Assembly (NCBI RefSeq): GCF_030269685.1
Contig: NZ_BSTT01000005.1
Location: forward strand, 62,001-126,000
Origin: Actinomycetospora sp. NBRC 106378
GTDB lineage: Bacteria > Actinomycetota > Actinomycetes > Mycobacteriales > Pseudonocardiaceae
Direction: 5' to 3'
Length of the DNA: 64,000 nucleotides
This document shows positions 42,252-64,000 of this stretch, in pieces; positions within the stretch are counted from its first letter, which is position 1; every line of letters starts with the position of its first letter. The notes under the pieces are model-generated. The model worked only from the letters and a program-made list of their open reading frames with translations. It was not told the origin of the DNA and searched no databases. The translations under genes were made by a program, and so were the position numbers.

Positions 42252-45200
42252 ATGAGCACGCCGAGCAACGAGTACGTCGAGGCCCTGCGGACGTCGCTGA
42301 AGGAGATCGAGCGGCTCCGGCGCCAGAACGAGGCGCTCGTCGCCGCGGCCGCGGAGCCGGTCGCCGTCGTCGGGATCGGCTGCCGCTTCCCCGGCGGCGT
42401 CGCGTCGCCGGAGGACCTGTGGCAGGTCGTCGTCGAGGGTCGCGACGTGCTCGGCCCGTTCCCCACCGACCGCGGCTGGGACCTCGAGCGGCTCGCCGGC
42501 GACGGCGAGGGGGCGAGCCTCGCGCAGGTCGGCGGGTTCCTCGACGACGTCGCGGGCTTCGACCCCGGGTTCTTCGGGATCTCCCCGCGCGAGGCGGTCG
42601 CGATGGATCCGCAGCAGCGCATCCTGCTGCAGATCACCTGGGAGGCCCTCGAGCGCGCGGGCATCGACCCGTCCGGCCTGCGCGGCAGCGACACCGGCGT
42701 CTTCGTCGGGACCACCGGTCAGGACTACGGCGAGGTGATCGCGGCCTCCGACGAGGACGTCGAGGTCTACTCGACGACCGGCCACGCGGCGAGCGTGATC
42801 TCCGGGCGGCTCTCCTACACGCTGGGCGCCGAGGGACCGGCCGTCACGGTCGACACCGGGTGCTCCTCCTCGCTCGTCGCCCTGCACCAGGCGGTCGCCG
42901 CCCTGCGCGCCGGCGAGTGCTCGATGGCCCTCGCCGGCGGCGCCTCGGTGATGGCGACCCCCGGCCCGTTCGTCGCCTTCACCGCCCAGAGCGGCCTCGC
43001 GGCCGACGGGCGGTGCAAGCCGTTCTCCGACCGCGCCGACGGCACCGGCTGGGCCGAGGGCGCCGGCGTGCTCGCCCTCATGCGGCTCTCCGACGCGCAG
43101 CGCGCGGGCCGCCCGGTCCTCGCGGTCCTGCGGGGCTCCGCGATCAACCAGGACGGGGCGTCGAACGGGCTGACCGCCCCGAACGGGCCCTCCCAGCAGC
43201 GGGTCATCCGCGCCGCCCTGCGCAGCGCGGGCCTCGCGCCCGGCGACGTCGACGTGGTCGAGGCGCACGGCACGGGCACGACCCTCGGCGATCCGATCGA
43301 GGCGCAGGCGCTGCTCGCGACCTACGGCCAGGACCGCGACGAGCCCCTGCTGCTCGGCTCGGTGAAGTCGAACATGGGCCACACCCAGGCCGCGTCCGGC
43401 GTCGCCGGCGTCATCAAGATGATCATGGCGCTGCGCGCGGCCACCGTGCCGCGCAGCCTGCACGCCGAGGAGCCCTCCACCGACGTCGACTGGACCGCCG
43501 GGGCCGTGCGCCTCGCCGCGGACGCCGTCCCGTGGCCGGAGCGGGGCCGGCCCCGGCGGGCCGGGGTGTCGTCGTTCGGCATCAGCGGCACCAACGCCCA
43601 CCTGCTCCTCGAGCAGGCCCCCGTGGCGACCGGGAACGAGCCCGCCGGGACCCCGCCCGCGCTGGTCCCGTTCGCCCTCTCGGCGCGGACCGCCGCGGGC
43701 CTCGACGCCCAGCGCGACCGCCTGTCCGCGCACCTCGCCACCCACCCCGAGCTGCGCCCCGTCGACGTCGGCCACTCCCTGGCCGCGGGGCGCGCGACCC
43801 TCCCGCACCGCGCGGTCCTGCTCTGCGCCGACGCCGTCCCGGCCGCCGCCACCGAGATCGCCCGCGGCGTCGCGGGCGAGGGCGGCACCGCCCTCGTCCT
43901 CTCCGGCCAGGGCTCCCAGCGCCTCGGCGCGGGGCGCGAGCTGTACGCCCGGTTCCCCGCGTTCGCGGCGGCGTTCGACGAGGCCTGCGCCCGGCTCGAC
44001 GAGCACCTCGCCGGCCACACCGACCGCCCGCTGCGCGAGGTCGTGTGGGGCACCGAGCCGGAGCTGCTCGACGACACCGGCTGGGCCCAGCCGGCACTGT
44101 TCGCCCTCGAGGTCGCCCTCTACCGGCTCGTCGAGTCCCTCGGTCTCGTCCCCGACGCGGTCGCCGGCCACTCGGTCGGCGAGATCGCCGCGGCCCACGT
44201 CGCCGGGGTGCTCACCCTCTCCGACGCCGCCGCCCTCGTCGCCGCCCGCGCCCGGCTCATGGCCGCGCTGCCGTCCGGGGGGTCGATGGTCGCCGTCGCC
44301 GCCACCGAGGAGGAGGTGACGCCGCTGCTCGGCCCCGGGGTCGCGCTGGCCGCGGTCAACGGGCCGGCCGCCGTGGTCGTCTCCGGCGACACGGACGCCG
44401 TGGCCGCGACCGTCGCCGCGGTCGGTGAGCGGTTCGGTGACCGCCGGACGACGGCCCTGCGGGTCAGCCACGCCTTCCACTCCCCGCTCATGGACCCGAT
44501 GCTCGACGCGTTCCGGTCGGTCGCCGAGGGGCTGACGTACGCCGAGCCGACGATCCCCGTCGTCTCCACCCTGACCGGCGCGCTCGCCGGTGCCTCCGAC
44601 CTGCGCAGCGCCGACTACTGGACCCGGCAGGTCCGCGGGTCGGTCCGCTTCGCCGACGCCGTCTCCGGTCTCGTCGGGCTGGGCGTCGACACCCTCGTCG
44701 AGCTCGGTCCCGACGCGGTGCTCTGCGGCATGGCCGACGACTCCCTGCCCGACGCCGCCGTCGCGGTCCCGCTGCTGCGCCGAGACCGCCCGGAGGAGCG
44801 GACGCTCCTGGCCGGCCTCGCCGCCGCGCAGGTCCGCGGCGCGGGCGTGCGGTGGGACGCCCTGCTCGCCGACGCCGGGGCCCGCCCGGTCGACCTGCCG
44901 ACCTACCCGTTCGCGAACCAGCGCTACTGGCCGGCGGCCACCAGGGGCGCCCGCGACGTCGCCGCCGCGGGCCTCGACGACGCCGGGCACCCGCTGCTCG
45001 GCGCCGCCGTCGAGCTCGCCGACGGCGGAGGGGTGCTGTTCACCAGCCGCCTCTCGCTGCGCACCCACCCCTGGCTCGCCGACCACGGTGTCCGTGGGCG
45101 TGCGCTGCTGCCCGGCACCGCGTTCGTCGAGCTCGCGATCCGCGCGGGCGACGAGGTGGAGTGCGACCGGATCGAGGAGCTGACCCTCGCCGCGCCGCTC

Positions 45201-63200: not shown

Positions 63201-64000
63201 GTCGAGGCCCTCACCCCCGAGCGCCTCGATCCGGTGCTGGCGCCCAAGGTGGACGGGGCGTGGCACCTGCACGACGCCACCCGCCACCTCGACCTGCGTG
63301 CCTTCGTGGTGTTCTCCTCGATGGCCGGCACGTTCGGCAGCGCGGGGCAGGCCAACTACGCGGCCGGCAACGCGTTCCTCGACGCCCTCGCGGCGCACCG
63401 CCGCGCCGCGGGCCTGCCCGGGCTCTCGCTGGCATGGGGCCCGTGGTCGGCGGGCAGCGGCATGACCGGCACCCTCAGCGAGGCCGAGCTCGAGCGGATC
63501 ACCCGGTCCGGGGTGCCGCCGCTCGACCCGGCCACGGGGCTGGCCCTGTTCGACGCGGCCCTCGCCGGCGACGACGCGGCCCTCGTCCCGGTGCGCCTGG
63601 AGCTCGCGACCCTGCGCGCCCAGGGCGGGCCGGCGCCGCTGCTGCGCTCCCTCATCCGCACCCGCAGCCGACGGGGCGTCGTCACGGCGTCCCCGGTCGC
63701 GGACGACCTGCGGGCCCGGCTGCTCGCGCTCGACCCGACCGGGCGTACCGAGGTCCTCGCCGACCTCGTCCGCAGCCAGGTCGCCCTGGTGCTCGGCCAC
63801 GGCGGCGCCGGCGAGGTCGACACGACCCGCGCCTTCCGCGACCTGGGCTTCGACTCGCTCACCGCGGTCGACCTGCGCAACCGCCTCGGCGCGGCCACCG
63901 GACTGCGCCTCCCGGCCACGACCGTGTTCGACCACCCGAGCGTCGACTCCCTCGTCGCCCACCTGCGCGACGAGCTGGTCGGGGACGAGACCCCGGTCGA
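42252..64000 (+). CDS. nysC: Giant polyene PKS, first four modules, runs off the window (DH-KR, DH-ER-KR, DH-KR, DH-KR); nysC-like
   Basis: An uninterrupted frame of at least 7249 codons with no stop before the window ends. Start ATG 42252 has GGAG at 42241-42244. N-terminal docking coiled coil [20 protein letters not shown]. Four modules are complete: KS cysteines 204, 1935, 3986 and 5715; AT serines 641, 2379, 4430 and 6161, all with HAFH (malonyl); ACP serines 1702, 3752, 5482 and 7202. Every module has an intact DH (HxxxGxxxxP plus [10 protein letters not shown]) and a KR without the A-type Trp; only the second has an ER. Expected chemistry is double bond, saturated unit, double bond, double bond, with more modules to follow since no docking tail appears after the last ACP. 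NysC of nystatin has six modules with its ER in the third; here the ER is in the second. Confidence 0.96.
42354..47465 (+). other. PKS module 3: KS-AT(malonyl)-DH-KR-ACP
   Basis: KS Cys codon 42861 in VDTGCSSSL (Gly for the usual Ala before Cys); AT Ser 44172, HAFH 44469-44480; DH His 45084 ([10 protein letters not shown]), Asp 45585 ([10 protein letters not shown]); KR with [10 protein letters not shown] near 46419, TVDDGV and Tyr 46851; ACP Ser 47355. It should introduce an isolated double bond. Confidence 0.92.
47550..53620 (+). other. PKS module 4: KS-AT(malonyl)-DH-ER-KR-ACP
   Basis: KS Cys codon 48054; AT Ser 49386, HAFH 49677-49688; DH His 50295 ([10 protein letters not shown]), Asp 50805; ER with [14 protein letters not shown] near 51756 and [13 protein letters not shown] near 52062; KR loop near 52590, LVDDGL and Tyr 53019; ACP Ser 53505. 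All reductive motifs look intact, so a saturated unit is expected. The ER-KR DNA is nearly identical to that of the first nysJ-like module. Confidence 0.92.
51957..52843 (+). repeat. ER-KR DNA tract, copy 2 (module 4)
   Basis: Partner of 5592-6472. After a divergent stretch, identity returns further into the KR (53054-53108 against 6682-6736), so the exchange looks patchy. Protein differences are minor, for example FMSMARH against FISMARH. Confidence 0.88.
53697..58815 (+). other. PKS module 5: KS-AT(malonyl)-DH-KR-ACP
   Basis: KS Cys codon 54207; AT Ser 55539 (GHSIGE) with HAFH; DH His 56451 ([10 protein letters not shown]), Asp 56955; KR loop near 57777, VLEDAT and Tyr 58200; ACP Ser 58695. 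It should begin the conjugated polyene. Confidence 0.92.
55252..56017 (+). repeat. AT DNA tract, copy 1 (module 5)
   Basis: About 765 bases covering most of the AT, from [18 protein letters not shown] to the FADAVETL motif, align with 60445-61210 at a constant offset of 5193 with no insertion or deletion and few substitutions. Codon choice is again less GC3-rich than the flanks. Confidence 0.88.
58884..63975 (+). other. PKS module 6: KS-AT(malonyl)-DH-KR-ACP
   Basis: KS Cys codon 59394; AT Ser 60732 (GHSIGE) with HAFH; DH His 61623 ([10 protein letters not shown]), Asp 62118; KR loop near 62940, LDD (GVLDDGVV) and Tyr 63357; ACP Ser 63855. The AT DNA is nearly identical to that of module 5. 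Confidence 0.92.
60445..61210 (+). repeat. AT DNA tract, copy 2 (module 6)
   Basis: Partner of 55252-56017. Similarity ends sharply after gatgcggtggagacgct at both sites, the sign of a recombination edge. Confidence 0.88.

What the first reader, a model, noticed from the sequence alone, without database searches (positions are those of the whole stretch)
42252..64000. ER one module earlier than in nystatin: a differently split polyene chromophore
The nysC-like protein reads DH-KR, DH-ER-KR, DH-KR, DH-KR. Established: in nystatin the ER is in the third module of NysC, giving a diene, a saturated break, then a tetraene. Inference: here the saturated break follows a single isolated double bond, and the conjugated system starts one unit earlier. 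If the following modules keep DH-KR as in nystatin, the conjugated run would be longer (for example a pentaene).
Basis: partly seen in the sequence, partly recalled or inferred. Interest (0 to 1): 0.75.

Follow-up and report, generated by a model that had tools for sequence, protein, structure and literature searches.

The report
Shifted reductase predicts pentaene antifungal
A bacterial assembly line closely related to the one for the antifungal drug nystatin carries a double-bond-removing enzyme one step earlier, apparently because parts of two neighbouring modules changed places, so it should make a molecule with five linked double bonds plus one separate one instead of nystatin's four plus two.

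Summary
The window gene at 42252 runs on to window position 74636 (10794 aa, six modules): DH-KR, DH-ER-KR, then four DH-KR. The nysI-like gene starts with an intact DH-KR. The predicted product has one isolated double bond, a saturated pair, then a pentaene. Other nystatin hallmarks are present; modules 15 and 16 are both fully reducing.

Tree tests indicate how the ER moved. The linker and KR-ACP segments of modules 4 and 5 have traded places relative to nystatin-type genes (same-position trees rejected for the joined segments, p 0.001 and 0.004; not for single segments), while KS4 stayed put. The later part of ER4 was then overwritten by ER15.

The layout is not unique: of 11 other nysC-like genes read, 6 (all Streptomyces) have the ER in module 4 and 5 in module 5. 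In protein trees the window cluster lies between two module-5 lineages.

Indirect support: a strain assigned to S. odonnellii, a species whose sequenced genome has the module-4 layout, makes a glycosylated compound with pentaene UV (PMC10744222). No product of the window cluster is known. New variant of a known kind.

The parts
42252..64000 (+). nysC-like PKS gene, modules 3-6 complete in the window; the gene continues to 74636 (modules 7 and 8, both DH-KR)
   Evidence: ORF and domain calls
42354..47474 (+). module 3: KS-AT-DH-KR-ACP; predicted C32=C33 isolated double bond
47544..53624 (+). module 4: KS-AT-DH-ER-KR-ACP; predicted saturated C30-C31
   Evidence: linker plus KR-ACP segment groups with nystatin-type module 5
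51678..52571 (+). ER domain of module 4 (HAGAGGVG and GKTD segments present)
51748..52843 (+). tract 92% identical over 1096 bp to module 15 ER-KR (window 5383-6472); 95-98% in the four 300-bp windows starting 52044, 52194, 52344 and 52494: recent gene conversion or recombination (inference)
53697..58814 (+). module 5: KS-AT-DH-KR-ACP; linker plus KR-ACP segment groups with nystatin-type module 4; first double bond of the predicted pentaene
55275..56186 (+). AT of module 5, 98.5% identical over 912 bp to AT of module 8 (which lies at window coordinate 70794-71705, outside the window)
58884..63974 (+). module 6: KS-AT-DH-KR-ACP; second double bond of the predicted pentaene
1053..18014 (+). nysJ-like gene, modules 15 (DH-ER-KR), 16 (DH-ER-KR), 17 (KR); start codon chosen by inspection
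5313..6200 (+). ER of module 15, partner of the tract in ER4
11466..12353 (+). ER of module 16; predicts loss of the nystatin C7 hydroxyl (inference)
18033..24251 (+). nysK-like gene, module 18 (DH with Asp replaced by Ala, KR, ACP; C-terminal thioesterase only by eye from the tail); AT motif YAAH
24248..25507 (+). cytochrome P450 (nysL position)
25595..27931 (-). ORF with cytochrome P450 at its 3' end (nysN-like by position; the true gene is shorter)
26800..28107 (-). DegT/DnrJ/EryC1 aminotransferase (nysDII-like, mycosamine)
27873..29273 (-). glycosyltransferase (nysDI-like)
29469..32531 (+). nysA-like loading module KS(Ser)-AT-ACP
32578..42228 (+). nysB-like gene, modules 1 and 2 (YASH AT, KR); start codon chosen by inspection

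Best explanation
A complete 18-module glycosylated polyene macrolide synthase of the nystatin/amphotericin kind in which the segments of modules 4 and 5 that carry the reductive linker and ACP are in exchanged order. ER now acts in extension cycle 4, so the chain should keep one isolated double bond (C32=C33, module 3), a saturated C30-C31 (module 4) and a pentaene (C20-C29, modules 5-9). Shown: domain order, intact motifs, tree support for the exchange, and a tract shared by ER4 and ER15. Inferred: that ER4 works in vivo, that the line runs colinearly, and the product. Since modules 15 and 16 are both fully reducing, the aglycone should also lack nystatin's C7 hydroxyl. The number of chain double bonds equals nystatin's (six), so mass alone would not reveal the shift; UV would.
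For: Domain order of modules 3-9 and intact motifs. Other nystatin marks: loading KS with Ser, YASH ATs in modules 1, 2, 11, dead KR13. Exchange: DH-to-reductase linker joined with KR-to-ACP tail, 36 rows: own module 4 with nystatin-type module 5 (96/92), own module 5 with nystatin-type module 4 (99/99); same-position trees rejected, AU p 0.0012 and 0.0038; modules 3, 6, 7, 8 group by position. KS4 stays with nystatin-type KS4 (99/100); KS4 with KS5 is rejected, p 0.0011. ER residues 1-88, mostly outside the shared tract, are nearer to the five module-5 ERs (61-66%) than to own ER15 (58%). Indirect product evidence: PMC10744222 section 2.6 (read whole) reports, for strain SZF-179 assigned to S. 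odonnellii, UV 318/334/352 nm of a 'pentene' macrolide with a glycosyl loss; the genomes of S. odonnellii NRRL B-24891 and S. lushanensis, the two species its 16S is compared with, both have ER in module 4. S. odonnellii module 9 is DH-KR, and the two other DH-KR contigs read there (C545, C63) hold no run of five.
Against: No product of the window cluster or its organism was seen. SZF-179 has no genome in the paper; its species rests on 16S. S. netropsis has the same layout and is recalled (no paper found) as a source of the heptaene mycoheptin; its ER4 motif is HAGAGGAG, so a module-4 ER may be silent. Single-segment AU tests did not reject the same-position trees (p 0.21-0.46); only the joined segments did, a test made after those had been seen. 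Linker 5 and tail 4 were unresolved on their own. Over ER residues 1-70 the lead of module-5 ERs is small (63-71% against 66% for own ER15). DH4 groups with nystatin-type DH4, not DH5. The free KS tree puts KS5 with own KS8 (98/91), and KS5 with nystatin-type KS5 is not rejected (p 0.054). Own sequences have long branches.
Confidence: 0.72

Rival explanations
1. ER4 is partly or wholly silent, so the cluster makes a heptaene or a pentaene/heptaene mixture, as amphotericin's ER5 does.
For: Amphotericin precedent (recalled). S. netropsis has the module-4 layout with an altered ER motif GGAG. Two substitutions in the ER5 NADPH motif turn NPP A1 into a heptaene (PMC6134108 passages).
Against: Own ER4 has the full NADPH motif and the GKTD segment, and its residues 95-298 are 96% identical to ER15 of the same synthase. 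Pentaene UV in the S. odonnellii-assigned strain.
Confidence: 0.17
2. The ER was gained in module 4 from module 15 and lost from module 5 independently, with no exchange of segments.
For: Whole-domain ER tree joins ER4 with own ER15 (96/92); KR4 is 86% identical to KR15; DH4 groups with nystatin-type DH4.
Against: The ER and KR signal lies largely in the shared tract. Linker plus ACP tail of module 4 side with nystatin-type module 5, and those of module 5 with module 4.
Confidence: 0.15
3. Assembly error: near-identical repeats in a 52-contig draft misordered the modules.
For: Repeats: AT5/AT8 98.5% over 912 bp, ER4/ER15 95-98% in its core.
Against: The best 300-bp window between module 4 and modules 5-8 is 91% (KS) and the longer matches are 83-86%; linker and tail of module 4, on either side of the ER tract, both fit best with nystatin-type module 5; permuting the AT5-AT8 segments would only shuffle DH-KR modules.
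Confidence: 0.04
4. The line is not colinear: ER4 acts in a neighbouring cycle (cross-module enoylreduction) or a module is skipped, so the chromophore differs from the prediction.
For: Cross-module enoylreduction in azalomycin F is cited in the reference list of PMC8944477 (title seen only).
Against: In NPP the ER5 acts in its own cycle (PMC6134108 passages); pentaene UV in the S. odonnellii-assigned strain.
Confidence: 0.07

Closest known systems
Nystatin A1 / NPP A1 polyketide synthases (NysC, NppC)
   Same: 18 modules, six-module C gene, methylmalonyl-type ATs in modules 1, 2 and 11, dead KR13, mycosamine-type genes; compared directly with P. endophytica, whose cluster PMC8944477 calls nystatin (passages). 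NysC and NppC sequences themselves were not at hand.
   Different: ER in module 4 instead of 5; module 16 fully reducing; module 17 without a DH; AT18 motif YAAH
Amphotericin synthase
   Same: 18 modules; module 16 with DH-ER-KR (PMC10974182 passages)
   Different: amphotericin ER is in module 5 (reference title seen); module 15 not fully reducing (recalled; so in the amphotericin-like CB01373)
Module-4-ER polyene clusters of Streptomyces (S. odonnellii, S. lushanensis, S. fulvorobeus, S. netropsis, CB00316, L-9-10)
   Same: ER in the second module of the nysC-like gene
   Different: another rearrangement: in S. lushanensis, S. odonnellii and S. fulvorobeus the module 5 body groups with nystatin-type module 6, and in S. 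lushanensis and S. odonnellii module 6 groups with their own module 4; module 16 is KR only in the 4 of these read so far along (S. netropsis, S. fulvorobeus, S. lushanensis, CB00316)
Selvamicin
   Same: glycosylated pentaene from Pseudonocardia
   Different: smaller ring: its C27 corresponds to C35 of nystatin (PMC8944477 passages), so four modules fewer by inference

Membership tests
Nystatin/amphotericin-type glycosylated polyene PKS | A, B, C, I, J, K genes with loading module plus 18 extension modules | tested here: met
Nystatin/amphotericin-type glycosylated polyene PKS | methylmalonyl AT in modules 1, 2 and 11, malonyl AT elsewhere | tested here: inconclusive
   YASH in 1, 2, 11; HAFH elsewhere except YAAH in module 18, whose specificity is unknown
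Nystatin/amphotericin-type glycosylated polyene PKS | inactive KR in module 13 | tested here: met
   NADPH motif and Tyr/Asn lost
Nystatin/amphotericin-type glycosylated polyene PKS | mycosamine genes (GDP-mannose dehydratase, aminotransferase, glycosyltransferase) | tested here: met
   Pfam matches; orthology taken from position, not from a tree
Nystatin (NysC) layout in the strict sense | ER in module 5, diene plus tetraene | tested here: not met
   ER in module 4
Nystatin (NysJ) layout in the strict sense | module 15 DH-ER-KR and module 16 KR only | tested here: not met
   both DH-ER-KR
Selvamicin-type pentaene | four modules fewer than nystatin | tested here: not met
   18 modules
Pentaene producers | pentaene UV of the product | not testable with these tools
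   only indirect, from a strain of a species with the same ER layout

The most novel reading that the evidence does not exclude
The order of two neighbouring modules is an evolutionary switch in this family. ER-in-module-4 may be the older state (shared by S. netropsis, the other Streptomyces and the window cluster) and the textbook nystatin/amphotericin layout the derived one, with the window cluster having kept or regained the older order. Each flip re-registers the chromophore without changing the number of double bonds, and the unit that moves may include the downstream KS, since KS5 here fits best with the KS that follows the ER module in nystatin-type genes (KS6 does not fit the matching expectation).
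Probability: 0.3. Interest if true: 0.65.

Novelty: new variant of a known kind. Interest (0 to 1): 0.48.

Why it matters
If true, it gives a naturally re-registered nystatin: same number of modules and of chain double bonds, but five conjugated plus one isolated. [quoted passage not shown] It also points to a natural, apparently tolerated exchange of reductive linker plus ACP between adjacent modules with KS4 kept, a pattern of direct use to those who engineer assembly lines.

Tried and rejected
Selvamicin as the answer: rejected, four modules too few. Simple ER gain from module 15: suggested by the whole ER tree, made less likely once the shared tract was separated. A missing module-9 DH: apparent, a search-filter artefact.

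Polarity of the ER shift: not resolved. In protein trees rooted on S. netropsis the window cluster sits between CB01373 and Pseudonocardia (module 3 100/100; module 18 89/94; modules 10-14 SH 100); on that topology the ER position needs at least two changes (counted by hand). The module 4/5 bodies instead place it outside CB01373 plus Pseudonocardia (own 4 outside the module-5 group, 95/86 and 99/87), and on that topology one change would do. One search holds rows that look like paralogues or poor matches by their 50-58% identity (module 18: Slush, Sodon, SL910, PsnC; module 3: PsnA, Pendo; B: Sodon, CB01373; modules 10-14: PsnB, which nevertheless groups with PsnA); they were not used for the placement. 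CB01373 cannot be used in the B tree.

Literature: looked for a polyene synthase with ER in module 4 or a related pentaene, for polyenes of Actinomycetospora, for mycoheptin; no title, abstract start or passage that I saw describes this layout. Most listed papers were not opened, and the library lacks most subscription journals.

Loci not counted: L121 (S. hoynatensis) and others have an ER in the second module of a gene, but the following modules do not match a nysC-like gene. L081 and G395 are the same S. odonnellii cluster, counted once. In S. lushanensis, DH-KR matches on contigs C62, C112 and C333 were not read.

Genus name: the order of group codes suggests Actinomycetospora; not tested.
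Full report
WHERE IT LIES. The window is C5:62001-126000 of a 6.3-Mb, 52-contig draft. Its PKS genes, in order of use (order by analogy with nystatin), are A (C5:91469-94531), B (94578-104228), C (104252-136636), I (34548-63041), J (63053-80014) and K (80033-86251). The finding's gene is C; 21.7 kb of its 32.4 kb lie in the window.

OBSERVATION. Domain search with models built from this PKS and Pfam gives: modules 1-2 KR; 3 DH-KR; 4 DH-ER-KR; 5, 6, 7, 8 DH-KR; 9 DH-KR; 10, 11, 12, 14 KR; 13 a broken KR; 15 and 16 DH-ER-KR; 17 KR; 18 DH-KR. 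Aligned motifs show the DH histidine in 10 of 10 DH domains and the aspartate in 9 of 10 (alanine in 18), KR Ser/Tyr/Asn complete in modules 3-9, and ER motifs HAGAGGVG and GKTD in 3 of 3 ER domains.

WHAT IT SHOULD MAKE. By the colinear rule and nystatin carbon numbering (recalled; that ER5 reduces C28-C29 is in PMC6134108, passages), module 3 gives C32=C33, module 4 saturated C30-C31, and modules 5-9 five conjugated double bonds from C29 to C20. Nystatin has a diene, a saturated pair and a tetraene: six double bonds in both. Modules 15 and 16, both fully reducing, predict an aglycone that also lacks the C7 hydroxyl. Pfam finds mycosamine-type and P450 genes. A further glycosyltransferase at C5:28009-29475 (-) is 68-71% identical to one in 3 of 4 Pseudonocardia-group genomes (G269, G295, G308; not G277) and 45-48% to the other matches. 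PMC8944477 (passages) says that extending GTs of Pseudonocardia nystatin clusters share about 50% identity with their mycosaminyltransferases, so a disaccharide is plausible; that these three are NppY/NypY was not tested.

HOW COMMON. With ER4 as query, 1 of 18 genomes of the own genus matched at E<=1e-100, the own one; in the family 29 of 390 at E<=1e-110 (6 candidates scored per genome); in Streptomyces, with an S. lushanensis ER as query, 23 of 392 at E<=1e-118, most not followed. Reading gene context gave 11 other nysC-like genes: ER in module 4 in S. netropsis, S. lushanensis, S. odonnellii, S. fulvorobeus, CB00316 and L-9-10 (the last two read only into module 5); ER in module 5 in P. 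endophytica, G269, G295, G308 and CB01373. They were picked from the best matches, so 6 of 11 is not a frequency.

HOW THE ER MOVED. (a) The whole-ER tree of 17 rows puts own ER4 with own ER15 (96/92), and the Streptomyces ER4s with the ER5s (100/99). (b) But own ER4 and ER15 share a DNA tract, 92% over 1096 bp, 95-98% in its core. ER residues 1-88, mostly before the high-identity part, are nearer to module-5 ERs (61-66%) than to ER15 (58%); over residues 1-70 the lead shrinks (63-71% against 66%). (c) On their own, the DH-to-reductase linker of own module 4 groups with nystatin-type module 5 (SH 96) and the KR-to-ACP tail of own module 5 with nystatin-type module 4 (SH 98); linker 5 and tail 4 are unresolved. 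(d) Tested singly, no segment rejects the same-position tree (p 0.21-0.46). (e) Joined (36 rows, 387 columns), own 4 with nystatin-type 5 has 96/92, own 5 with nystatin-type 4 has 99/99, and the same-position trees are rejected (p 0.0012, 0.0038), while modules 3, 6, 7 and 8 group by position; a set of 59 rows agrees (98/91 and 100/98). (f) KS4 groups by position (99/100). The free tree puts KS5 with own KS8 (98/91) and KS6 with own KS7 (93/88); holding KS5 with nystatin-type KS6 is 2.98 log units better than that tree, with KS5 32 worse (p 0.054); KS6 fits neither nystatin-type KS5 (36 worse, p 0.084) nor KS6 (35 worse, p 0.028). So a moving downstream KS is only half supported. (g) DH4 and DH5 both fall with nystatin-type DH4 (SH 92), and AT5 is 98.5% identical to AT8. 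These I read as later homogenisation; for DH4 it may also mean that the exchange began after the DH. PMC4256081 (passages) reports BGC-specific branching of AT but not KS domains for a set that includes nystatin and amphotericin, which fits for AT. The simplest reading is an exchange of segments from linker to ACP between modules 4 and 5, followed by gene conversion.

POLARITY. In S. lushanensis and S. odonnellii modules 4 (ER) and 6 group together (95/89, with S. fulvorobeus module 4), and nystatin-type modules 4 and 5 are sister groups (94/90): ER-bearing and ER-less copies of one ancestral module seem to sit in different orders in different lineages. The window cluster branches between CB01373 and Pseudonocardia, both with ER in module 5, in the usable protein trees, which needs two changes; the module 4/5 bodies put it outside both, which needs one. 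Which order is older stays open.

INDIRECT PRODUCT EVIDENCE. PMC10744222 (passages; section 2.6 read whole): strain SZF-179, 16S 99.25% to S. odonnellii and 99.63% to S. lushanensis, makes compounds with UV 318, 334 and 352 nm and a glycosyl loss; the structure was not solved. Both species' sequenced genomes have the module-4 layout. S. odonnellii module 9 is DH-KR; that of S. lushanensis was not read. The other DH-KR contigs read (S. odonnellii C545 in part and C63 in part, S. lushanensis C8) hold no run of five; three further contigs of S. lushanensis were not read. This supports the rule that ER in module 4 gives a pentaene, but the strain differs from the sequenced ones.

CAVEATS. No product is known for the window cluster. 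The draft has near-identical repeats, though none found that would move the ER. AT18 has GHSTG and YAAH where the seven module-18 relatives aligned have HAFH (HAAH in S. netropsis), so the last extender is uncertain.

Noticed in passing
window 19716-20660 (AT of module 18): Specificity motif YAAH with GHSTG, where the seven module-18 relatives aligned have HAFH (S. netropsis HAAH); may select an unusual last extender unit at C2.
   Followed up: partly
window 3825-12905 (modules 15 and 16): Both modules are fully reducing, a combination not seen in the 8 other nysJ-like genes read through modules 15-16; ACP15 and ACP16 are 89% identical.
   Followed up: partly
L010:8009-9475 (-), C5:28009-29475: Second glycosyltransferase, 68-71% to one in 3 of 4 Pseudonocardia-group genomes searched; suggests a disaccharide on the polyene.
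   Followed up: partly
L142/L143 (G308, nysC-like gene): Appears to have only five modules; the last has a KS like module 7 and a body like module 8: a natural or assembly-made fusion.
   Followed up: no
L145 (G396, S. netropsis ER4): ER NADPH motif reads HAGAGGAG; may mean a silent ER and a heptaene.
   Followed up: no
L009:17674-19473 (-): Chorismate-binding plus aminotransferase class IV fusion (PABA-type) upstream of the cluster, although the loading module is not of the aromatic kind.
   Followed up: no
window, 7 places on the - strand (e.g. 48492-48566): Rfam ASpks antisense matches that recur inside KS-coding DNA; likely coding similarity rather than an RNA.
   Followed up: no
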